In this document: positions 1-46,562 of the stretch, piece by piece
Layout: every line of letters starts with the position of its first letter
How positions within the stretch are numbered: position 1 is the first letter of the stretch
Assembly (NCBI GenBank): GCA_017514975.1
Contig: JAFWIF010000032.1
Coordinates: 1-52,643, forward strand
Length of the DNA stretch: 52,643 nucleotides
Origin: Candidatus Saccharimonadota bacterium
GTDB taxonomy: Bacteria; Patescibacteriota; Saccharimonadia; Saccharimonadales; Saccharimonadaceae
Direction of reading: 5' to 3'
Made by a program: the position numbers and the translations under genes
Notes under the pieces: model-generated
What the model saw: only the letters and a program-made list of their open reading frames with translations
What the model was told of the DNA's origin: nothing
Databases searched by the model: none

Positions 1-857
1 TCCTAAAGACTGAGACGGTTACCGAAGGTGGGGCGGCTACTGCTCCTGCTAATCCTTCTCGCACTGGTTACGAGTTTAAGGGTTGGGATAAAGCCTTCAA
101 CAATATTACTGCTAATACTACCGTTAATGCTACGTGGGATGAATATAGCTATACTATAAAATTCGACGCCAACACTGGCACCGGCAACATGCCAAACCAG
201 AGCTTTACCTACTCCGAACAAAAAGCCCTTACCAAAAACACTTTCACCAAAGACGGTTACAGTTTCAAGAATTGGAATACTATGCCAGACGGCTCCGGCA
301 TTAGTTACACGGACGCACAAACCCTTAAGAGCGTCTCCGCAATTAATAACCACACCATCACTCTCTACGCTCAGTGGCAAGCCAATGCCGCTCCCACGCC
401 AAGCTATACCATCCACTTCGACGCCAACACTGGCACCGGCAATATGTCCAATCAGACCTATAACCTCGATCAATCCACCGCTCTCCCTGCAAACGGCTTC
501 ACCAAAGACGGTTACAGTTTCAAAAACTGGAACACCATACCAGACGGCTCCGGCATTAGTTACGGCGATCGCCAAGAGATTAACAACCTCGCCTCTGCCA
601 ACCAAACCATCACGCTCTACGCCATCTGGGAGAAGAATCCTGATCCAGTTATCCCAGATGATCCCGCACCAGTTGACCCAGCTCCCGAAGAACCAACCAA
701 CCCAGCCAATCCCGAACCAACCGAAACTCCAGCCAATCCTAAGGCCATCGACAATCCTAAAACCGCCGCCGAGCACCTCCCCGCCATCATCGCCACTCCA
801 ACCATCCTCCTCGGCCTCACCGCTACCGGCTACCATTTCTTGAGGAAGCGCCGCTAA
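1..857 (+). CDS. InlB B-repeat surface protein, 3' end (5' truncated by window edge)
   Basis: The frame is open from the first base, so the start lies upstream. Three InlB B-type (Listeria-Bacteroides, Flg_new) repeats are visible: a partial one ending around FKGWDKAF, then two full 85-residue copies starting FDANTGTGNM and containing GYSFKNWNT and ITLYA.W. A Pro/Glu-rich spacer follows, probably spanning the cell wall. The C-terminus has a sorting signal: NPKTA, a hydrophobic stretch and an RKRR tail. The protein should be exported and covalently anchored by a sortase. NPKT resembles the NPQTN-type signal of class B sortases, and the only sortase in the window (41028-41975) is of that class. 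InlB repeats are typical of adhesins, but the ligand cannot be read from the sequence. Confidence 0.85.
   Translation, partial: LKTETVTEGGAATAPANPSRTGYEFKGWDKAFNNITANTTVNATWDEYSYTIKFDANTGTGNMPNQSFTYSEQKALTKNTFTKDGYSFKNWNTMPDGSGISYTDAQTLKSVSAINNHTITLYAQWQANAAPTPSYTIHFDANTGTGNMSNQTYNLDQSTALPANGFTKDGYSFKNWNTIPDGSGISYGDRQEINNLASANQTITLYAIWEKNPDPVIPDDPAPVDPAPEEPTNPANPEPTETPANPKAIDNPKTAAEHLPAIIATPTILLGLTATGYHFLRKRR
162..563 (+). repeat. 255-bp intragenic direct repeat (InlB repeat units)
   Basis: Two in-frame units start at 162 and 417, offset by 255 bp (85 codons). The best conserved block is 66 bp, at 243-308 and 498-563, with five silent or near-silent differences. Such identity could support unit gain or loss by recombination. 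Confidence 0.85.
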
Positions 858-12070: not shown

Positions 12071-13584
12071 CTAAACTCTCCTTCTCACCCCAATCATCGC
12101 CCCCAGCCCCGCAACCGCTCCCCCAATCACCATAAAGACAGTCGCATAATTCTCGCCTGCCGTCTTAGGATTTTTTACTACAGTCGCCGCTTTTGCGCTA
12201 TAAGTATTCACAAATTCCACCGCACCGCTAGAAACTTTCACCGCATTTGCCTCGTCCTTACCATAGCCCTCTCGCCCTGCACTGCTCTCAACATACGCCC
12301 CTTTGCCGCCTTTCGCGCTCACTAAACCGTTCTCCGTCTTCTCCCACGCGCGCCATATACTCCCGTCATTCGAAACTTCCACGCTCGCCATCCACGTATC
12401 GCCATTCTTCGCCCACTTCACCCCACTTCCGCCAATCGTAAACTCCTCGACCGCATCTTTCGTCTTCGTCACTACCGGCACGCTCCCCGCCAGAGGCGCA
12501 TCATCGGGTGTTAATGCGCCATCGCTATCCCAAGTACCGGACCGACTCGTAAAATTCGGCAAATTCCCATTTTCTAGCACGCCCGAAAGCCTAAACATAC
12601 CCAGAAATCTCCCTACCTCAATCTCGCCATCCATAGTCGGTGATGAGCCCATCTTCTGATACTCGTTCCCGACTCTCCTCAAATCCCACCCTTCAATTGC
12701 CGATGCATCTTCTAACGACGTTGTTCTATTGAACATTTGCTCAGCCATAACGAGATTTGAGACATTCCAACCCCCAATCGGCGCTAAAGTCGTGATCCTG
12801 CGCGCATTTTTAAATATACAAAACATATCAACCACGCTTTGCGTATTCCAATTCGCTAAAGGCGAAAGGTCTGTGTAGCTCATATAGTTTTTCTCGTCAT
12901 CCAAATCCGATCCGCTGCGCACAGTCCCAAACATATAACGCATACCCTTCACGTTCCCTGTATCCCAATTCGCCAAAGGCGAAAGATTGACAAGGCTCGT
13001 GTCATTTGCGAACATTCCGCCCATTACCTCTACGTATGTCGTATTTAGTGCACTTACCCCATCAATATCTGCAAGATTACGCATCCCCCTAAACATATGC
13101 GCAGAGTTGCTATTCATATAGATATTGTCCGCCTCGCTATAATAATAAATCGTACCGTTATCAAACCACATATAGACAGCTAAACCGCTTTCCGCCACGT
13201 TCTCCATCGTCGCCCCTCTCGCTACCGCTTCGTCGTATTTCGCTTTTTCTGCTTTCTTAAATGCATAGATGGTCGTATTAGGGCTTGCGTAATCCGATGC
13301 TCCACTATTTCCCGCCAACGTCTTCATCGCAATCGCTACTTCTAGCCCGGTTTTCAGTGTCGCCGACACCTTCTTTAAGTGTATCTCCGTATCTTCCGAT
13401 CGCACCGCTTCACTATCCCCCGCCCACTTCTTCGTCACCGTAATCCTGCGCGTCGTCGCACCGCTATTTGTTGCCGCCTGCACCGTCGCCATATTTCCCC
13501 CGCCAACCACAAATCCCGCCAAAAGCAGCAACGCTGACGCTAAGAATTTTCTCTTATACCCCCCCCCCGAATTCTATTTCTCAT
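12071..13584 (-). CDS. BspA-like (DUF285) sortase-anchored surface protein, out of frame at a G10 tract
   Basis: The body encodes a signal-peptide core (FLASALLLLAGFVVGGG), a CnaB-like start (RRITVTKKWAG), a DUF285/BspA-type repeat region (ANWDTGNVKGMRYMF, ANWNTQSVVDMF, GGWNVSNLVMAEQMF, EGWDLRR; roughly residues 170-290) and a sorting signal NPKTAG, hydrophobic helix, RRRV. BspA-like proteins are surface adhesins. The only ATG with a good ribosome-binding site (AGGA at 13598-13595) is at 13584, and ten G residues follow the fifth codon. With ten G the frame ends after 14 codons; with 11 or 8 it joins the body perfectly, giving MRNRIRGGGYKRKFLASA. As sequenced the gene is off, unless an internal TTG (13531) is used, or the count is a sequencing error. 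Confidence 0.8.
13559..13568 (-). repeat. Homopolymeric G10 tract (candidate phase-variation switch)
   Basis: Ten consecutive C on the plus strand, G on the coding strand, lie between codon 5 and the signal-peptide core of the surface protein gene. Slipped-strand changes by one base would switch the frame on or off. Confidence 0.75.
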
Positions 13585-17672: not shown

Positions 17673-18785
17673 TCAGCCATACTTCATTCTTTTCCCACTG
17701 ACTACTAATAGACCTCCGCTCGCCAATCCTGCCGCACCAATCAGTTCTATCGCCCCATTCGCAACCCCAGTTTCAACAGTCTCTGCTTTCGTATTCACGA
17801 ATTTCGTCACATTTCCCAACAAAAACGTCTCCTCTTCTGCTGCCTCTTCTGAGCTTAGCGGCTCCGGAAACGTCACCTTTGACACTATTTTACAAGCACA
17901 TTCTCGCCACGTTCCTTTATCTACAACTATCGAATATGTATCCGCCCCCTCCTCACGCACATCATACGTAAACAAAATTGGCACCTGCCGCAGCCCATCT
18001 GCTCTTTTCCCTATTGTCGCCACCTGTCCATGCTTTAAATAAATGTAATTTTTTTGTCCAGCAATATACTCCGTCTGCGTCCGCACTACTTCTCCTAAAT
18101 ATACTACCGTCTCATCTTGTCCGTGAATCTCGTACCTATCTCCCACATTTTCTTCCTGTATTTCAACTAAAAATTTAAAATATTCACCCGCGTCCGCCAT
18201 ACTCCCCTCAACCTCTTTTGCAACTTCAATATATGTCATCTTTTGCGTAGTCTCAAAAACTATTTCCGCCTTCGCTCCATTACTCCCTTTTGTCGCCAAG
18301 CTCGCAATCTCGGCAACTAATCCCCCAGTCATCTTTCCGCTTTCATCTATCTTATTCTTCACTGTAATCAGCACTTCGTACGTTTCGCGGTCTTTCGGCA
18401 TCATAATTGGCGCATTTGAGCTTCTTTCCCGAATTACGAATCTATATTGTCCTGCTCTCGAAAATTTCAATTCCGACAAATCTAACTCCTTCGTCACCGT
18501 CGCAACGTGGCGCACGTCCGGAACTACTCTTACGAAATCAACCGAAAAACTATTCATGAGCCCCACTATCGGTTCAGGATTTCCTGCACTTTCCGCTACG
18601 CCATATAAAAAACTCTCATTCAGCGGATTCGTCACTCCCGCCACTTTCTTTGTTATCTTAATCTTTGCTTCTTTGTCCACTATATCTCCCAGCCTAAAAG
18701 TCGCAGCATATCCATTGTCGCCACACAACAACCCTAATCCTATAACAACCCCCATCAAAAACCCACCCAAAATCATTTTCCCCAT
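17673..18785 (-). CDS. FctA-like pilin-type surface protein (stand-alone paralogue)
   Basis: 370 residues: signal peptide (about 1-28), two pilin domains of the streptococcal Spy0128/FctA type and a C-terminal sorting signal AETVETGV, hydrophobic helix, KRMKYG. Domain 1 opens with KIKITKKVAGVTNPLNESF and contains the typical LDLSELKFSRAGQYRFVIRE strand pair; domain 2 opens with MTYIEVAKEVEG. The order and spacing match the two pilins at 41956-43014 and 43587-44678 (both have MTY.E/LTY.E and DEYFK-type segments). Such domains normally carry Lys-Asn isopeptide bonds. It sits outside the pilus operon, alone between tRNAs and a glycosyltransferase, so it may be a tip or alternative subunit. Confidence 0.75.
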   Translation of the reverse strand: MGKMILGGFLMGVVIGLGLLCGDNGYAATFRLGDIVDKEAKIKITKKVAGVTNPLNESFLYGVAESAGNPEPIVGLMNSFSVDFVRVVPDVRHVATVTKELDLSELKFSRAGQYRFVIRERSSNAPIMMPKDRETYEVLITVKNKIDESGKMTGGLVAEIASLATKGSNGAKAEIVFETTQKMTYIEVAKEVEGSMADAGEYFKFLVEIQEENVGDRYEIHGQDETVVYLGEVVRTQTEYIAGQKNYIYLKHGQVATIGKRADGLRQVPILFTYDVREEGADTYSIVVDKGTWRECACKIVSKVTFPEPLSSEEAAEEETFLLGNVTKFVNTKAETVETGVANGAIELIGAAGLASGGLLVVSGKRMKYG

Positions 18786-34989: not shown

Positions 34990-37206
34990 ATGTCTACTTT
35001 TGACGCAGAATGGCGCAACGGTCACTATACCCCCTCTAACCGTCAAATCAACATCTCACCCTACGGACAGACCTACACGCACTCCCCTTCCCCAAAAAAC
35101 CGCAAAAACCACAAGCTCCGTCTTGGCATCGTCATTGTTCTTGCTATCCTCGCTTTAGCCGGCGGCACTACTGCCATCATGCAATTTCACTCCAATCAAC
35201 AGACCAATGCCGCTACTACCCAAACTACTGATTTTGACACTGCTCTTGCTAACGCTAAAAAGCTCAACGGTCTTACCGTCACCACTACCAAACAAACTAA
35301 AGCCGTCAAAAACAGCGCCGAGGCTCAAGCGCTAATCGACGCCGAGACTCAAAAACTCACCCAAGCCATCGCTACGCAAACCGCCAACAATAAAACCTAT
35401 GAAAACCGCTCCAAAGATCCAAATTATATCTTCCATAAACTTACCGATCAAAACAAAGCCGACGGCTACACCCCTGAAATACTCTGGAAATTCCTCAATG
35501 ACAACGGCATCACAAATGTAAAAGATTTATATCCTATCGAGCTTCCCAATATCTACGAAACAAAAGTCGCTCCAATTACCAATGCTACCCGCATTACAAG
35601 CACTCGCCAAAAAGACCTACTAAACTGGGGCCTCGAAGCTGGCGCCATCATCTATAATATCCGGCAAGGCGATTACTATATCTTCCCCAACGCCCTGAAA
35701 GATAACAATAATAAATCCGTCGATATTAAATTCACTATCAAAAACTTTACCGTATATGAAGACGCACTCCAGCCGATGATGGTACGAGACACTATGGGCT
35801 TCTCTATTGGCGGCGGCGTCTCAAGCGTCACTTGGGATATCTCGTTCTTATATCACGACACCCAGCAACCTTTTACCGCTAATTTTATCTGGCTCAACCA
35901 CGACCTCGACGGCGGCGGCTGGGGCCTACTCAAACATTGGGGCGGCGACTTCAGCTGGCCCGCCGTAACAGGTGCCCACGGCCAAGCTTTCAAATCTCCT
36001 AACACCGCCCAATTTACGCCCTCCAAATCTGCCGTCAAAGCCATACCTTACCAAGGTAGCACTATTTATGCTGGCTCCCTCCTCACCGAAGGCGGCGAAA
36101 TATATAACATTGATCCACCTCACGTCCAAGGACAAGTCCTGTCCCTGCTTAAAAACAAAAATTCCTTTGAATACACTTTCTATTCCGATGTCAGCATGGA
36201 CCTCACGCGCTCAAGTAAGCTCGGAGACGCCGATTATTCGCAATTAGTCGACAACGGCGTTACTCTCCCTGCCACTCCGCTATCTCAAGCAACTATCGAC
36301 GCTTGGGCTGCGCGCAATCGCCAAGCCGTCGCCAACAATGAACTTTTCTATCGTACCGCATCTGGATGGGACGCCGATTACGATCATTTAGTCGACTCAT
36401 GGGCCTACGTTGGCTTTGCTGGCGACATGCTAAATATGCAATTACCCAACCTTACCACGTCTTCCGTCTCGGTTACCGAGTACACCTTCACTCAGAAAAC
36501 CACCGTCAACTATGTCGACATAACAACCAATAAAACTCTCACCTCAACGACCGCTACCGGCAATCCAAACGCCACTTTTACTTGCAAAGACGATACAAAA
36601 GTTACAAACTACATCAATACCGGCTATGACTTTGTCAGCACTAACTGTCCTACCACGCCAAAATTTGACTCTAATCTCGACTCTGATCAAAGTTATATCG
36701 TTTACCTAACTCCCCATATCGAAGAAATCCCACACGACAACCCAAAAGAAGGAGGAACGCCCACTGATCGCCCCAAAGTCAAATATCCAGACGGTGTCGA
36801 CGAGGCTGACCTAATCAAAGAAGTCACTCGTACTATCTATTACGTCTACCACGATGGTCGCACCGCTTCAGAACCAGTCGTCCAAAAAACTATCCTCACC
36901 AGAGATGCCGTCTTTAATTACGTTACCAAAGAAGTCGAATACAGCGACTGGACTGTTGCAAAACTCGACTCAGTCAAATCTCCAACAATCGCCGGTCACA
37001 CCGTCGACATCAACAATGTTGATGGCATTGACATCTCCATCAAAGACGAACCCGAAAACGTCACCGTTACCTATACCCCCGAACAACTAACTGTCGCAAA
37101 CCCAAAAACCAAAGACACATCTAACCTCCCCTTAATTCTCGCAATCTCCATACCCGCCACCTCTGCCATGTTCGCCTCTCTGTTCTTCTTCCTCCGCCGC
37201 CGCTAA
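34990..37206 (+). CDS. Mucin-binding-type (MucBP/Mub) sortase-anchored adhesin
   Basis: 738 residues. A 45-residue polar basic N-terminus precedes one hydrophobic segment (about 45-66), which may be an unusually long signal peptide or a membrane anchor. A helical region and a large beta-rich domain follow (about 200-490; GGGVSSVTWDISFLYHD, HDLDGGGWGLLKHWGGDFSW), then a MucBP-like domain (TVNYVDITTNKTL, about 500-575) and a Mub B2-like domain (TRTIYYVYHDGRTA, VTKEVEYSDWTV, VKSPTIAGHTVD; about 610-700). The end is a sorting signal: NPKTKD, hydrophobic helix, RRR. MucBP and Mub domains bind mucins or glycans, consistent with adhesion to a host surface or host bacterium. Confidence 0.85.
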   Translation: MSTFDAEWRNGHYTPSNRQINISPYGQTYTHSPSPKNRKNHKLRLGIVIVLAILALAGGTTAIMQFHSNQQTNAATTQTTDFDTALANAKKLNGLTVTTTKQTKAVKNSAEAQALIDAETQKLTQAIATQTANNKTYENRSKDPNYIFHKLTDQNKADGYTPEILWKFLNDNGITNVKDLYPIELPNIYETKVAPITNATRITSTRQKDLLNWGLEAGAIIYNIRQGDYYIFPNALKDNNNKSVDIKFTIKNFTVYEDALQPMMVRDTMGFSIGGGVSSVTWDISFLYHDTQQPFTANFIWLNHDLDGGGWGLLKHWGGDFSWPAVTGAHGQAFKSPNTAQFTPSKSAVKAIPYQGSTIYAGSLLTEGGEIYNIDPPHVQGQVLSLLKNKNSFEYTFYSDVSMDLTRSSKLGDADYSQLVDNGVTLPATPLSQATIDAWAARNRQAVANNELFYRTASGWDADYDHLVDSWAYVGFAGDMLNMQLPNLTTSSVSVTEYTFTQKTTVNYVDITTNKTLTSTTATGNPNATFTCKDDTKVTNYINTGYDFVSTNCPTTPKFDSNLDSDQSYIVYLTPHIEEIPHDNPKEGGTPTDRPKVKYPDGVDEADLIKEVTRTIYYVYHDGRTASEPVVQKTILTRDAVFNYVTKEVEYSDWTVAKLDSVKSPTIAGHTVDINNVDGIDISIKDEPENVTVTYTPEQLTVANPKTKDTSNLPLILAISIPATSAMFASLFFFLRRR

Positions 37207-41027: not shown

Positions 41028-41975
41028 CTATCTCAGCTTGTCGACCACTAGCTTAATAAAAATACCAACCACTCCTATAAACATTATTGTCAGAGCAACT
41101 TTTTTCACCGGAAACGCTCTCGCCTCCTTTTCATGCGAACTCTCCGCTTCCACAACCTGATTCGACGCAGAATCACCATCACTTTCACTCTCTATATCTT
41201 TATCTATCGCTCCATCTATCTCGGCCTCTCCGTCCGAAATTAATTCCAACGCACCCAGCGCAACATCTCTATTCGCCTTAACACTATCATCGCAAGTCGA
41301 TAGAATAACTATTTTATCTACAGCGCCTATATCACTCCGAACTCTTTTAGCCTTGCTCTGAAAATATTGCACAATCGCATCATTCTCACCCTTCGCCAAC
41401 GCCGATAGCCCATAAACCTTCAAATCAAATGCACTCACTTCCGCATACGCTAAAATTTTCAGCCGATATACACCCTCTTCTGCGTATACTCTTCCTTCAC
41501 CATTATTCTCAAAAAAATCCGCGTCCTCAAATCTCGCCACATCTGAAAACATGCGATTTTTACTCATATGATGCCCATATAGAATACTATAGTCATCCAA
41601 AAAACTTCTATTTCTGTAGTCGAGTATGATACTACCCGCCGCCGCATACTCCTTTTTATAATCCAAATTCAAATATTCTGAATTGTCCGTACTTTGTAAA
41701 ATGGGATAATCAATATTAGTATTATCGACTTTTATCCAGCCAACTATATCCCCATTAATCTGTTTCAAATCTTTCAACGAAAAATCCCCACCATCATCTC
41801 TACTCGGCCTCAATCTCAGCACGTCATCTCCAAGATTCGCACTATCAACCACAGATACCGCATCATACAGCGCAAATCCGCCCAACGCAATCACGCCCAA
41901 AAACACCAAACTCGCAATGATCGTAATCGCGACATCTATTACCGAAATTACCTGACTAAGAATTTTTTTCAGCAT
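41028..41975 (-). CDS. Class B-type sortase (pilus operon)
   Basis: 315 residues. N-terminal membrane helix (about 12-38), then a sortase domain with the class B features INGDIVGWIKVDNTNIDYPI, GSIILDYRN, YGHHM (catalytic His135), ILSTCDD (Cys228) and ANRDV (Arg236). A second C-terminal helix (about 290-310) after an acidic linker is unusual for SrtB and more like pilin-polymerising sortases. In the Streptococcus pyogenes FCT region a class B sortase polymerises FctA pilin. This one overlaps the minor pilin gene by 20 bp, so pilus assembly is its likely job. It may also anchor the NPKT proteins, since it is the only sortase in view. Confidence 0.92.
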   Translation of the reverse strand: MLKKILSQVISVIDVAITIIASLVFLGVIALGGFALYDAVSVVDSANLGDDVLRLRPSRDDGGDFSLKDLKQINGDIVGWIKVDNTNIDYPILQSTDNSEYLNLDYKKEYAAAGSIILDYRNRSFLDDYSILYGHHMSKNRMFSDVARFEDADFFENNGEGRVYAEEGVYRLKILAYAEVSAFDLKVYGLSALAKGENDAIVQYFQSKAKRVRSDIGAVDKIVILSTCDDSVKANRDVALGALELISDGEAEIDGAIDKDIESESDGDSASNQVVEAESSHEKEARAFPVKKVALTIMFIGVVGIFIKLVVDKLR

Positions 41976-43014
41976 TCCGCTTTTTTGTCTTCATCAGTAA
42001 TCCAATCCCCGCACCACCGATACCAACCAACACTACAAACGGCCAAAAATTCATTAATATTCCAGTCAGCGCCACATCAAAATTCTTTTTATGCACAACT
42101 AGGATCATATTTTCAGCCCCATTCTCCGCTAAGCCAATCTTGCCAGAAAATATCACTTCTCTTCCATTAATTGTCGTCTGCCATTTTCTTGATCCAATTT
42201 TCTCCACCGACACATTTGTTCCGATTGGAATTTGCCCAAATCCACCATCGGCACAGGTCGGACAGCCGAGCCCAATTTTAGCCACTTGATCCGCCTTCAG
42301 ATATACATATACGTAATTATCGCCGCCTTCTTTGACCTCATAGAAATTCGTCGTCTCCACCTCTTCACCGTCAAACACCACTTTTGCATCTTGCCCAGAT
42401 ATTACGAATTTATCTCCAGGTTTTCCGTCAATAACTACCTTGTACTTAAAATATTCATCTTTATCAGCCTGAGCACCTTCAGTGCGCGTTTCGATCGCAA
42501 AATAAGTCATTTTCGTCACATTATCAAAAACAAGATTGGCCTTCTCTCCCTTATCATAATCCCAGCCCAAACCGTATACTGTTTTTACTAATTCGCCCAT
42601 CTTATATTTCATCTCAACAGAAATACGATATTTTTTCGCACTAACCGGATAATTAGTAGCATCACTCGAGAAAACCTCCTCTACATCATATTCGTACACG
42701 CCTTTTTCTCTATAAGTCGTGTCACTAAAGTCAATCACCACATCTTTTTCTACTTTACCGCTCTCATCGCTTTGCGCCCCACTAAAATCCACTATTACCT
42801 CAGATGGTTCATTCGCTGCCCCAGCAGGATTCGAGCTCTTTGGACTAATTCTCAACTTATAAGTATTCGTCATCGGATTTGCTACATTATTTACTAGCAC
42901 CTTAACATTTACCTTATCTGCACTGTCGGCATAGACAGCATAATTCGCAAAAATCCCCAGCCCTAAAGCTAGAAATAAACTCATTATATATAGTTTCCAA
43001 TTCGCTCTTTTCAT
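41956..43014 (-). CDS. FctA-like pilin, second subunit
   Basis: 352 residues: signal peptide (about 1-29, NYAVYADSADK), two Spy0128/FctA-type domains and a sorting signal with NFDVALTGI, hydrophobic helix and a KKRNAEKNS tail. Domain 1: VNNVANPMTNTYKLRI and VVIDFSDTTYREKGVYEYDV; domain 2 from MTYFAIETRTEG with DEYFKYKVVIDG. A pair of cysteines (GCPTCADGG) in domain 2 could form a disulfide. It follows the SipA-like gene by one base and may be the minor or base subunit. Lys/Asn/Glu positions suggest isopeptide bonds, not proven here. Confidence 0.85.
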   Translation of the reverse strand: MKRANWKLYIMSLFLALGLGIFANYAVYADSADKVNVKVLVNNVANPMTNTYKLRISPKSSNPAGAANEPSEVIVDFSGAQSDESGKVEKDVVIDFSDTTYREKGVYEYDVEEVFSSDATNYPVSAKKYRISVEMKYKMGELVKTVYGLGWDYDKGEKANLVFDNVTKMTYFAIETRTEGAQADKDEYFKYKVVIDGKPGDKFVISGQDAKVVFDGEEVETTNFYEVKEGGDNYVYVYLKADQVAKIGLGCPTCADGGFGQIPIGTNVSVEKIGSRKWQTTINGREVIFSGKIGLAENGAENMILVVHKKNFDVALTGILMNFWPFVVLVGIGGAGIGLLMKTKKRNAEKNS

Positions 43015-43015
43015 T

Positions 43016-43573
43016 TTATATATTTCTCACTTGAATTTTACCTATTACTTTTCCTGATATTTTACTAATCTCAACCCCTCCAAAACTCCTCGAATCCCCT
43101 AGATTGCTTCTCGCATCATTAAGCGTAAATACTGAACCATCCTCAACTCTGTACGGAAATTGAATAGCCGCCTTCTCATCTTTAATCGTCTCATAATAAA
43201 CAGTTTCTTCCTCGACATTCCCATCTATCAGCACTTCACCATCCTCATTAATATCAACCGTCTGCCCGCCCTCAGCCACTACTCTCTGTACCACCAGCTT
43301 TCCATCCTTCTCAAAGACCACTACATCCCCTCTCTTAAAACTATGTTCTATTCTTGAATAAATCAATAGCGCACCGTCTGCAATATTTGGTTTCATTCCT
43401 ACACCAGACATCGTCGTCAAGCCTATGATGAAACCAAAAATTACCACAAACAAACCAGCAATTACGCAAATTTTGACTAATAGCCGTATTGCTTTCCTTT
43501 TTAAAGAATCGTTAGACTCGCGTGGACGAACGGTCTTCTTACTAATTTTAAGTTCATTCGACCCTTCGTCCAC
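43016..43573 (-). CDS. SipA-like pilus assembly protein (signal peptidase I fold, catalytic residues lost)
   Basis: 185 residues from GTG 43573. An N-terminal helix (about 33-57) is followed by the type I signal peptidase fold: GMKPNIADGALL (box B), RGDVVVFEKDGK, QRVVAEGGQTVDI (box D) and FTLNDARSNLGDSRSFG (box E). The nucleophile Ser of SMxPT is Gly59, and the Lys of the KRV motif is Gln96, so it cannot act as a peptidase. Streptococcal SipA, encoded next to FctA, has also lost both residues and is needed for pilus polymerisation; the same chaperone-like role fits here. A TTG start at 43615 is possible but less likely: GTG has AAAGGA nine bases before it and begins just after the pilin stop. 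Confidence 0.88.
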   Translation of the reverse strand: MDEGSNELKISKKTVRPRESNDSLKRKAIRLLVKICVIAGLFVVIFGFIIGLTTMSGVGMKPNIADGALLIYSRIEHSFKRGDVVVFEKDGKLVVQRVVAEGGQTVDINEDGEVLIDGNVEEETVYYETIKDEKAAIQFPYRVEDGSVFTLNDARSNLGDSRSFGGVEISKISGKVIGKIQVRNI

Positions 43574-43586
43574 TTTGCCCGTTCCT

Positions 43587-44678
43587 TTAACGCTTGCGTT
43601 CGCCCTTAGCGCCAAACTTCAGTGCAACAATACCAACACCACCCAAAATCGCCAACACTATAAATGGCCAATAATTTACAAAAATACCAGTCAGCACATC
43701 TTCATTTTTTTCATTTACATACGTTGCTTTATTCTTTGTCGCAAAATCATTAGCACCAGTTGCCACTACGGTAGTCTCTGCCAATGTCGCGTTGCTAGCG
43801 CCATTTACTGTCACGGTATAGTCATCATCAGCCGCTTCCGTTACGGTCCACTTTGCCCCAACCGGAATCTGATTTTTACCATCACTTGTCTGACCAATTT
43901 TTATCGTCTGGCTCCCCTTAATGTAAACTACGCAGTCCACATTAAAAGAACACTGAGTCGCCGATCCATGACCAGAATCCGCACCTGTCACTGTATATTT
44001 ATCCGTCGCAAGACCAGTACCGTTAATTTTCACTGTAAACTTAAAATATTCATCGGTATTCGCCGTGGTACCTTTTAGCTGTTTTGCAATTTCAACATAT
44101 GTCAAATTTGCGTTTTCTTCAAACACGATCTCAGCCTTTCCGGCTACAGTCCCGTTATTCGCCGTCACTACGCTAGTCGTTCCGGTCGCTGTCGCAGACG
44201 CTGTTAAGGCACCCGTAGGAGTATTATTCGCATCAACCACATTGCGAACCGAAACATAGAAATACCAGCTCGCATCACTATCGACTGGGTATGCCGTACT
44301 ATTGCTCGATGCGGTTTCTGTTATCTTAAAGACATAATCCCCGACCTCTGTAAATTTAAATGCCGACAAATCTACAGTTTTTGTCGCCGTAGCCGTTCCA
44401 CTTGTTGGCGCAACGTTCTCAAACGGAATCGTAAATGTCGTTGGTGAAATCGTCGCCGCTGTCGTTGAATATCCAGACCCCGAGGCTCGTTCAATTTTAT
44501 ACGTAAACGTATTCGTCACGTTATTTTGCGCGTTGTCCACTTCGCGCTTAACTACAATTGACTTTTTGCTATTATCCCACGTCGCTTCTGCGGCCGCACC
44601 CGCATCCATCGCCCCAATAGCGAAACCCCCAAACAGAGTTGCCACTAAGGCTAGTAATATTTTATTTATTTTCCCCAT
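43587..44678 (-). CDS. FctA-like major pilin, first gene of the pilus operon
   Basis: 363 residues: signal peptide (about 1-30, ending DAGAAAEA), domain 1 starting SIVVKREVDNAQNNVTNTF (Lys44 in the position of the isopeptide Lys of Spy0128), VDLSAFKFTEVGDYVFKITE, domain 2 from LTYVEIAKQLKGTTANTDEY to ATYVNEKNEDV (candidate Lys/Asn pair) and sorting signal DVLTGI, hydrophobic helix, KGERKR. In Spy0128 the equivalent signal is EVPTG directly after the last isopeptide Asn; spacing is the same here. Its strong promoter and first position suggest the shaft subunit. Confidence 0.88.
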   Translation of the reverse strand: MGKINKILLALVATLFGGFAIGAMDAGAAAEATWDNSKKSIVVKREVDNAQNNVTNTFTYKIERASGSGYSTTAATISPTTFTIPFENVAPTSGTATATKTVDLSAFKFTEVGDYVFKITETASSNSTAYPVDSDASWYFYVSVRNVVDANNTPTGALTASATATGTTSVVTANNGTVAGKAEIVFEENANLTYVEIAKQLKGTTANTDEYFKFTVKINGTGLATDKYTVTGADSGHGSATQCSFNVDCVVYIKGSQTIKIGQTSDGKNQIPVGAKWTVTEAADDDYTVTVNGASNATLAETTVVATGANDFATKNKATYVNEKNEDVLTGIFVNYWPFIVLAILGGVGIVALKFGAKGERKR

Positions 44679-44686
44679 TAACTAAC

Positions 44687-44713
44687 TCCTCCTTTAATTG
44701 TTCCTTGATTATA
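44687..44713 (-). promoter_or_regulatory. Promoter and ribosome-binding site of the pilus operon
   Basis: On the minus strand TATAAT (44713-44708) and, after a short leader, AAAGGAGGAG (AGGAGG at 44692-44687) before the ATG at 44678. No good -35 box is seen, so an activator may be needed. Confidence 0.6.
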
Positions 44714-45339: not shown

Positions 45340-45993
45340 TTATTTCAATTCTTTGATTACTTCAAATGCCTCCCCCATCTCACTCTTCCTATTTTCTAAT
45401 AATTCCCCCAATCCTATACCCTCATATTTTCTCTTCAATGCTTCCCCTTCGGCTCTCAACTTACTATACTCTATCAGCATTGCGTCTTTCTTCTCCCCGT
45501 CTTGACTCGCATATTTCGCCTCAAACTCCACCGCTCTATTTAGAAAATTTTTCATCTCTTCACCTACTTGTCGCAGCTTCTCATTTGAGCTCTCCGCCCA
45601 CGCTTCAAACTTTCCTTCCTTCACCATCTTCACAAGCTTCTCCAGTTCCTCCCATCTTAGAAACGCTTTTTCTGCCCTTTCTACTATTTCACCTCTGTCA
45701 CCTCTTTTTGCTGCCCTGTTATCGCGCAGCCTCTGTAAACGTTCTTTATTTTCTCGTACAAGCTCCGTTAACTCTGCCTCATTACTCTGCTCGCTCTCCA
45801 ATAACCCCATCATACTCGCCTCGGTCGCAACAAACTCTTCCGCTACTGTCAAAAATTTACGCTCCTCCGCTTTCTCCATAAAAAACAGGCTCAAAAACAC
45901 TATCACTCCAACCCCAACACCAGCAACTAGTGCAATCATCAGCCGATTTCGACCTCTCCTCGTTCTCACCTCTTCTGTCATCGTTTTACCCAT
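45340..45993 (-). CDS. Membrane-anchored coiled-coil protein of unknown function
   Basis: 217 residues: basic start, one transmembrane helix (about 19-38), then nearly continuous Glu/Lys/Arg-rich helices (TELVRENKERLQRLRDNRAA; EELEKLVKMVKEGKFEAWAE) typical of coiled coils, located outside the membrane. Its start overlaps the end of the DUF3152 gene by 16 bp, so they are coexpressed. A second ATG (45981) could also serve. No family is recognised. Confidence 0.6.
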   Translation of the reverse strand: MGKTMTEEVRTRRGRNRLMIALVAGVGVGVIVFLSLFFMEKAEERKFLTVAEEFVATEASMMGLLESEQSNEAELTELVRENKERLQRLRDNRAAKRGDRGEIVERAEKAFLRWEELEKLVKMVKEGKFEAWAESSNEKLRQVGEEMKNFLNRAVEFEAKYASQDGEKKDAMLIEYSKLRAEGEALKRKYEGIGLGELLENRKSEMGEAFEVIKELK

Positions 45994-46562
45994 AATTCAT
46001 TAGGCATCGGCCACACGCCAGGCTGACATCCTCTCAACCCCGTCGATTGCTGCAGCATAATCGGCGCCGTACCGTTTTCAATCTCACACTTCGCAATATG
46101 ATCATGTCCCAAAAAATGACCAACTTCGTGATTTATCACCATTTGTCTATATTCTGCAACTTTCACGCCAAGCTGGTTATAACTGTCCGAACCTCCCATC
46201 CACCTATCGTCATTAATCAAAACGTCTGATTTCACCGTGCAGCTCAACTTATCCGAACAACCCGCACTCGCCTCTGCTACTTTTTTCGGAGAAGCCAATA
46301 TCATTTTCAGCTCACCCCCTTTTTCAACTTCCTCAAACTTCACTCCAGCCCTTGCCCAACCCTTTTCGTCGCGCAAGGTTTCCGCTACTACCTTCCGAAA
46401 TTCCTCCTTATCGCCTTTTATATCGCCTCTCGTTTCTATTCTGTATTTAACTACCCTTTCTGAAATATTTTTTGTGTAAAAACCGTCAGCAATCTTCTGC
46501 ATATTCAACTCTACTCTTGCCACCTCTGTCGCAATTGCTACCCCTATTAGCCCCTCAATCAT
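45978..46562 (-). CDS. DUF3152-type zinc metalloprotease-like protein
   Basis: 194 residues. The C-terminal half has [13 protein letters not shown], a full HExGHxxGxxH metzincin zinc site, and the DUF3152 continuation [20 protein letters not shown]; upstream are [17 protein letters not shown] and [11 protein letters not shown], also typical of DUF3152. I know that family mainly from Actinobacteria, where members are secreted or lipid-anchored. The N-terminus ([19 protein letters not shown]) is only weakly hydrophobic, so export is uncertain. GGAGGTG precedes the ATG and the gene ends in TGA. Four Cys may form disulfides. Confidence 0.85.

What the first reader, a model, noticed from the sequence alone, without database searches (positions are those of the whole stretch)
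43016..43573. Signal-peptidase homologue with both catalytic residues lost, inside a pilus operon
The SPase I boxes are present, but the nucleophile Ser is Gly59 (GVGMKPN) and the general-base Lys is Gln96 (VVQRVV). Streptococcal SipA, encoded beside FctA, has independently or ancestrally lost the same two positions and works as a pilus assembly factor. Finding the same combination in a CPR-like genome suggests either transfer of a whole pilus system or convergent loss, and predicts a non-proteolytic chaperone.
Basis: partly seen in the sequence, partly recalled or inferred. Interest (0 to 1): 0.8.

Follow-up and report, generated by a model that had tools for sequence, protein, structure and literature searches.

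The report
Inactive signal-peptidase chaperone in CPR pilus operon
A tiny-genome bacterium of the candidate phyla radiation carries a four-gene covalent pilus operon like that of Streptococcus pyogenes, including the pilus-assembly factor SipA, a signal-peptidase look-alike without its catalytic residues; the set was probably acquired as a unit and may let the cell stick to its surroundings or its host.

Summary
It encodes a 185-aa type I signal-peptidase homologue with Gly59 where the catalytic Ser should be and Gln96 where the catalytic Lys should be. It is a SipA by sequence (best PDB match S. pyogenes SipA, E 6e-20), by predicted fold (SipA ranks first) and by context. Its operon is FctA-like pilin, SipA, FctA-like pilin, class B sortase, the same kinds of gene as the streptococcal FCT pilus region.

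All 66 dyad-less SipA proteins (Streptococcus, Lachnospiraceae, one actinobacterium, 32 CPR) fall on one side of a branch (99/93), away from the genome's own intact signal peptidase. Grouping CPR SipA with CPR signal peptidases is rejected (p-AU 0.0002). SipA and sortase trees share 37 of 54 splits (shuffled: at most 2). So the loss of the Lys is old and shared, and the operon travelled as a unit. Other CPR copies are under purifying selection (dN/dS 0.05-0.17) while both catalytic positions drift.

Most likely role: a non-proteolytic membrane assembly factor for sortase-built pili. A new member of a known kind, in a new phylum.

The parts
43587..44678 (-). FctA-like pilin 1 (363 aa): signal peptide, two Ig-like domains, sorting signal VLTGIFVNYWPFIVL; probable shaft pilin, first gene of the operon
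   Evidence: Pfam DUF7601 1.3e-9; family profile A3 hits streptococcal FctA T-antigens 8f70 1.3e-31 and 3b2m 7.8e-20; predicted model's best Foldseek matches are FctA 3gle/3gld/3b2m at 1e-14 to 1e-15
44686..44693 (-). strong ribosome-binding site (AAAGGAGG) of pilin 1
   Evidence: sequence AAAGGAGGAGTTAGTTAATG
43016..43573 (-). SipA-like protein (185 aa, GTG start): one N-terminal TM helix (about 21-49) and an SPase-I beta fold without the Ser/Lys dyad (Gly59, Gln96; Asn152 in place of the SPase invariant Gly)
41956..43014 (-). FctA-like pilin 2 (352 aa), sorting signal ALTGILMNFWPFVVL; probable minor or basal pilin; starts 1 nt after the SipA stop
   Evidence: TIGR03786 pilin isopeptide domain 0.006 (weak); FctA-family profile 351 bits, but this protein is itself a row of that profile
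41028..41975 (-). class B sortase (315 aa) with catalytic LSTC motif and C-terminal TM segment; overlaps the pilin 2 end by 20 nt
   Evidence: TIGR03064 4e-50 above cut-off; PDB SrtB family 4y4q 4.9e-35
17673..18785 (-). third FctA-like pilin, unlinked to the operon (VETGV sorting signal)
   Evidence: FctA-family profile 225.8 bits

Best explanation
The gene encodes a SipA/LepA-type pilus assembly factor: a membrane-anchored type I signal-peptidase homologue whose Ser/Lys dyad was lost in a common ancestor shared with streptococcal and Lachnospiraceae SipA. It works without proteolysis. Anchored by one TM helix on the outer face of the membrane, its SPase-like peptide groove probably holds or presents the membrane-tethered pilins (their sorting-signal or membrane-proximal segment) to the adjacent class B sortase, which polymerises FctA-like pilins through (V/A)LTG motifs into a covalent pilus. 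Real signal-peptide removal is left to the genome's separate, intact SPase I. The operon entered this CPR lineage as a unit, most likely from a Bacillota-type donor, and persists under purifying selection. Shown here: homology, lost dyad, operon, shared ancestry, co-inheritance with sortase, selection in relatives. Inferred: pilus formation, chaperone/presentation role, direction of transfer.
For: SipA is the best PDB match, 14 orders of magnitude ahead of active SPases, and the top fold match (Z 13.7 over 119 residues, next E. coli SPase 10.3). The dyad is absent; among 66 SipAs none has Lys at the general-base column (G29, S22, R6, L4, A2, Q, D, Y) and the nucleophile column holds ten residues, while M60, D160-S161-R162 and G165 stay invariant or nearly so. 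The third diagnostic, SPase Gly272 replaced by Asn in SipA, is also met (Asn152). All dyad-less SipAs lie on one side of a branch, 99/93; the alternative of CPR SipA plus CPR SPases is rejected. SrtB of CPR forms one group (100/99) beside Lachnospiraceae SrtBs, and SipA and SrtB trees share 37 of 54 splits. The operon is conserved: nearly every CPR SipA locus with enough sequence has pilin-SipA-SrtB; 28 of 44 congeners carry the gene. dN/dS is 0.05-0.17 between close CPR SipAs. The genome has an intact SPase I elsewhere (G000:C23; S/K dyad). In S. pyogenes SipA is essential for pilus polymerisation, shows no peptidase activity, and mutating Asp at the nucleophile position (alone or with the nearby Lys) has no effect (PMC4049620).
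Against: No pilus or protein has been observed. In S. pyogenes no binding of SipA to pilin, sortase or peptides could be shown (PMC7900414), so the presentation mechanism is unproven even in the model system. The window's own SipA has no close relative (best 43% identity), so selection on this particular copy could not be measured. The predicted model is only moderate (pLDDT 69; residues 54-63 around Gly59 below 50). CPR SipA monophyly is modest (90/76), and placement of the window's SrtB beside genus 2 depends on the taxon set.
Confidence: 0.82

Rival explanations
1. Convergent loss: a CPR signal peptidase lost its dyad independently and was recruited next to pilin genes.
For: Some other CPR-order SPase-like proteins have altered dyads (L084 Ala/Lys, L096 Ala/His), so loss does occur there.
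Against: The tree holding CPR SipA with CPR-order SPases is 41 log units worse, p-AU 0.0002; the dyad-less SipAs are one side of a branch, 99/93. The class B sortase shows a matching history.
Confidence: 0.04
2. It is an active pilus-dedicated peptidase using other residues (as ER-type signal peptidases use His, or with a nearby Lys).
For: Fold and groove are retained; D160, S161 and R162 are invariant; 16 of 32 CPR copies still have Ser at the nucleophile position.
Against: The window copy has neither Ser nor Lys/His at the site. No Lys or His is conserved within 6 columns of the general base across CPR SipAs or among well-conserved SipA columns. S. pyogenes SipA has no peptidase activity, and D61A/K98A had no effect.
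Confidence: 0.06
3. A decaying relic: the pilus system was acquired and SipA is now degenerating without function.
For: One congener (G038, L064) has a shortened 105-aa SipA, 16 of 44 congeners show no such gene, and catalytic residues are gone.
Against: Intact ORF with RBS in a tightly packed operon; invariant structural residues; dN/dS 0.05-0.17 in relatives; pilin and sortase intact.
Confidence: 0.05
4. SipA's main task is not with the polymerising sortase but in signal-peptide handling: a decoy SPase that delays or steers pilin signal-peptide cleavage by LepB.
For: The fold is that of a signal-peptide binder, and the groove is retained in S. pyogenes SipA. The gene sits directly beside or between pilin genes.
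Against: SipA goes with class B sortase operons and its tree matches SrtB's, which suggests a sortase-linked task; a groove mutation in S. pyogenes SipA had no effect.
Confidence: 0.15

Closest known systems
SipA/LepA of Streptococcus pyogenes FCT-2/3/4 pilus regions (PDB 4n31, 4k8w)
   Same: SPase-I fold, N-terminal TM, loss of Ser and Lys, Asn in place of SPase Gly272, operon with FctA pilins and class B sortase
   Different: Gly/Gln instead of Asp/Gly at the two positions; about a third identical; CPR genome; SipA lies between two FctA-like pilins and no Cpa-like adhesin adjoins the operon
Lachnospiraceae SipA-SrtB pilus operons (e.g. L003, L004, L005)
   Same: Same gene kinds, dyad-less SipA (mostly Asp/Gly), class B sortase, large anchored adhesin
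   Different: Order adhesin-SipA-pilin-SrtB-pilin in the Lachnospiraceae; pilin-SipA-(pilin)-SrtB in CPR
SipA operons of another CPR genus of the same family, g2 (L117, L118)
   Same: Identical order pilin-SipA-pilin-SrtB; closest SipA (43% identity, 98/93 with the window)
   Different: L117 has a 1090-aa adhesin directly upstream; the window does not; different dyad residues (S/Y, V/L)
Type I signal peptidase (LepB/SpsB)
   Same: Fold and the conserved boxes apart from the catalytic positions
   Different: Catalytic Ser and Lys and the adjacent Gly absent; separate branch; the genome has its own intact copy

Membership tests
SipA/LepA pilus assembly factor | SPase-I homologue closer to SipA than to active SPases | tested here: met
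   PDB sequence 5.9e-20 versus 8.4e-6; fold Z 13.7 versus 10.3; 99/93 branch with S. pyogenes SipA
SipA/LepA pilus assembly factor | Catalytic Ser and Lys absent; SPase Gly272 replaced | tested here: met
   Gly59, Gln96, Asn152
SipA/LepA pilus assembly factor | Encoded in a pilus operon with FctA pilin and class B sortase | tested here: met
SipA/LepA pilus assembly factor | Required for pilus polymerisation | not testable with these tools
   Shown in S. pyogenes only (PMC4049620)
Type I signal peptidase (active enzyme) | Ser/Lys catalytic dyad | tested here: not met
   Gly59/Gln96; no conserved substitute Lys or His
FctA-type backbone pilin (neighbours) | Two Ig-like domains homologous to T-antigen, sorting signal xxTG plus TM | tested here: met
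   Profile 1.3e-31 to 8f70 and 7.8e-20 to 3b2m; fold 3.5e-15 to 3gle; VLTGI/ALTGI C-termini
FctA-type backbone pilin (neighbours) | Intramolecular Lys-Asn isopeptide bonds | tested here: inconclusive
   By alignment pilin 1 appears to keep Lys, Glu and Asn in its second domain and Glu121 in its first; the first-domain Lys is unclear and pilin 2 lacks the second-domain set
Class B sortase | TIGR03064 above cut-off with catalytic Cys motif | tested here: met
   170.3 bits versus cut-off 153.75; LSTC in the sequence
Candidate phyla radiation (Patescibacteria) | Small genome lacking ribosomal protein uL30 | tested here: met
   0.89 Mb, uL30 absent here and in 112 of 116 phylum genomes, present in 13 of 14 controls; no 16S in the assembly, so class (Saccharibacteria suspected) is not shown

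The most novel reading that the evidence does not exclude
A genus of episymbiotic CPR bacteria captured a complete streptococcal-type covalent pilus (FctA, SipA, class B sortase) and uses it as the tether to its host cell, making it a host-attachment organelle distinct from the type IV pili usually credited with that role.
Probability: 0.35. Interest if true: 0.7.

Novelty: new member of a known kind. Interest (0 to 1): 0.5.

Why it matters
No paper found in the held library describes SipA or FctA/SipA/class-B-sortase pili in CPR bacteria; CPR attachment is usually discussed in terms of type IV pili, with sortases noted as enriched (PMC6744442). A covalent pilus carried by 28 of 44 congeners is a candidate host-contact structure. 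For the open question of what SipA does and why only class B sortase pili need it (PMC7900414), the CPR and Lachnospiraceae families give a natural mutation series: catalytic positions drift freely, structural positions are fixed, and SipA tracks SrtB. That points to SipA-sortase or SipA-pilin contacts rather than the old active site.

Tried and rejected
Plasmid hits of the protein (Geobacillus, Collinsella and others) are nearly all annotated lepB; the two opened lie outside pilus operons, so all were left out as SipA donors. The actinobacterial locus L010 encodes ordinary S/K signal peptidases. Hungatella hits (L007, L111) keep the dyad and were used as near outgroup. 16S typing failed because the assembly has no 16S; TM7 primer papers were not found. 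Promoter and terminator scans around the operon gave no more than chance. The fraction of SipA genomes in Lachnospiraceae was not counted because that list also holds intact-dyad relatives. Placement of the window's SrtB beside genus 2 was 96/84 in one data set but not recovered in another, so a genus-2-to-genus-1 transfer is not claimed; genus 1 SipA monophyly is borderline (p-AU 0.051).

Full report
Observation. The ORF at the stated coordinates is on the minus strand: GTG at 43573, stop at 43016, 185 aa, with a ribosome-binding-like AAAGGA about 9 nt upstream of the GTG. The plus strand of the same interval, read in frame 1, is full of stops. The protein scores as Peptidase_S26 (3.8e-22) and bacterial signal peptidase I (7e-25). 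Position 59 (GVGMKPN) is Gly where the nucleophilic Ser should be and position 96 (VVQRVV) is Gln where the general-base Lys should be, checked against PDB chains and an alignment with intact enzymes.

What it is. The closest solved structure by sequence is S. pyogenes SipA (4n31, 5.9e-20; 4k8w, 4.3e-19); the first active SPase follows at 8.4e-6. An AlphaFold model (pLDDT 69; helix 21-49, then the SPase beta fold) matches SipA first by Foldseek (7e-8) and by VIA-align (Z 13.7, 2.4 A over 119 residues; E. coli SPase 10.3). The loop 54-63 around Gly59 is poorly predicted, so active-site geometry is not claimed from the model. A third SipA hallmark is met: the invariant SPase Gly next to the catalytic Lys is Asn152 (28 of 28 intact enzymes have Gly; 24 of 32 CPR SipAs have Asn).

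Operon. Going with the minus strand: FctA-like pilin 1 (44678-43587), 13 nt, SipA (43573-43016), 1 nt, FctA-like pilin 2 (43014-41956), 20-nt overlap, class B sortase (41975-41028). Pilin 1 has a strong RBS. A profile of these pilins and their CPR relatives hits streptococcal FctA T-antigens at 1.3e-31 and 7.8e-20, and the pilin 1 model's best matches are all FctA backbone pilins (3.5e-15). The sortase passes the class B cut-off and matches SrtB structures. These are the gene kinds of the streptococcal FCT region, where SipA is required for FCT-2/3/4 pili and goes with a class B sortase (PMC7900414). A third FctA-like pilin lies apart at 17673-18785, and several very long proteins elsewhere in the genome carry the C-terminal pilin domain and are candidate tip adhesins. 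The window has no adhesin adjoining the operon. The genome has a separate intact signal peptidase (G000:C23).

Genome. The window's genome is 0.89 Mb, 94% complete, and lacks uL30, as do 112 of 116 sampled genomes of its phylum, while 13 of 14 control genomes have it. That fits CPR/Patescibacteria. There is no 16S in the assembly, so the class is not named.

Distribution. SipA-like genes occur in 28 of 44 sampled congeners (counting E below 1e-10) and in two species of one other genus of the same family (G317, G417); elsewhere in 392 genomes of the order the best matches drop from about 177 bits to 75 and below, ordinary signal peptidases. Nearly every CPR locus with enough sequence shows pilin-SipA-SrtB, and the two genus-2 loci show the window's order pilin-SipA-pilin-SrtB. 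Outside CPR the family occurs in Lachnospiraceae and one sampled actinobacterium (L157/L172), commonly with the order adhesin-SipA-pilin-SrtB-pilin.

Ancestry. In a 96-protein tree with the two catalytic columns removed, all 66 dyad-less SipAs are one side of a branch (99/93), with intact-dyad Lachnospiraceae proteins nearest outside. Forcing CPR SipA together with the CPR order's own SPases costs 41 log units (p-AU 0.0002), so recruitment of a local SPase is rejected. CPR SipA is one group at 90/76. The sortase tree places CPR SrtB as one group (100/99) next to a Lachnospiraceae group (90/89), which suggests a Bacillota-type source. SipA and SrtB trees of 57 loci share 37 of 54 splits against a shuffled mean of 0.18 and maximum of 2: the two genes travel together.

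Constraint. Among 66 SipAs none has Lys at the general-base column and the nucleophile column has ten different residues, whereas D160, S161, R162, G165 and F149 never vary. No Lys or His is conserved within six columns of the base position in CPR. Close CPR pairs have dN/dS 0.05-0.17. The protein is therefore kept, but not for Ser/Lys chemistry. This extends to a new phylum what S. pyogenes mutants showed: changing the Asp at the nucleophile position, alone or with the nearby Lys, leaves pilus assembly intact (PMC4049620).

Mechanism. Best supported: a membrane-anchored, non-proteolytic assembly factor that helps the class B sortase handle FctA-type pilins, perhaps by holding the pilin's sorting or membrane-proximal segment. 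Identity, operon, shared origin and constraint are shown; pilus formation and the mode of action are inferred, and even in S. pyogenes no binding partner has been demonstrated.

Verdict. It is a new member of a known kind in an unexpected phylum. Literature searches of the held library found no earlier description in CPR, with the limits of that library.

Noticed in passing
window 17673-18785 (-): Isolated third FctA-like pilin gene near a threonyl-tRNA synthetase-like ORF and tRNA genes, away from the pilus operon (225.8 bits).
   Followed up: partly
window 1-857 (+), 12071-13531 (-), 34990-37206 (+): Three surface-protein ORFs with NPKT-type C-terminal sorting signals, unlike the xxTG signals of the pilins, which suggests a second sortase pathway; all 100 relatives have at least one sortase.
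   Followed up: no
G000 C24 and C2 (L195-L199): Very long ORFs (709 to 1624 aa) carrying the FctA C-terminal domain, candidate tip adhesins.
   Followed up: no
L007, genome G426 (Hungatella hathewayi WAL-18680): About 34 signal-peptidase-like paralogues in one genome; the two examined keep the Ser/Lys dyad, and L007 sits beside a very large secreted-looking protein.
   Followed up: no
L186 4399-8497 (G577): One pilus operon holds both a dyad-less SipA and an intact-dyad SPase-like protein (L123), possibly a duplication that separated the two roles.
   Followed up: partly
L084, L096: Other CPR-order SPase-like proteins with altered dyads (Ala/Lys, Ala/His), outside the SipA group.
   Followed up: no
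L064 2078-2395 (G038): A 105-aa shortened SipA beside an intact SrtB in a congener.
   Followed up: no
window 45978-46562 (-): DUF3152 protein with a zinc-protease-like [11 protein letters not shown] motif near the pilus operon; a similar ORF lies near the operon in congener L037 as well.
   Followed up: no
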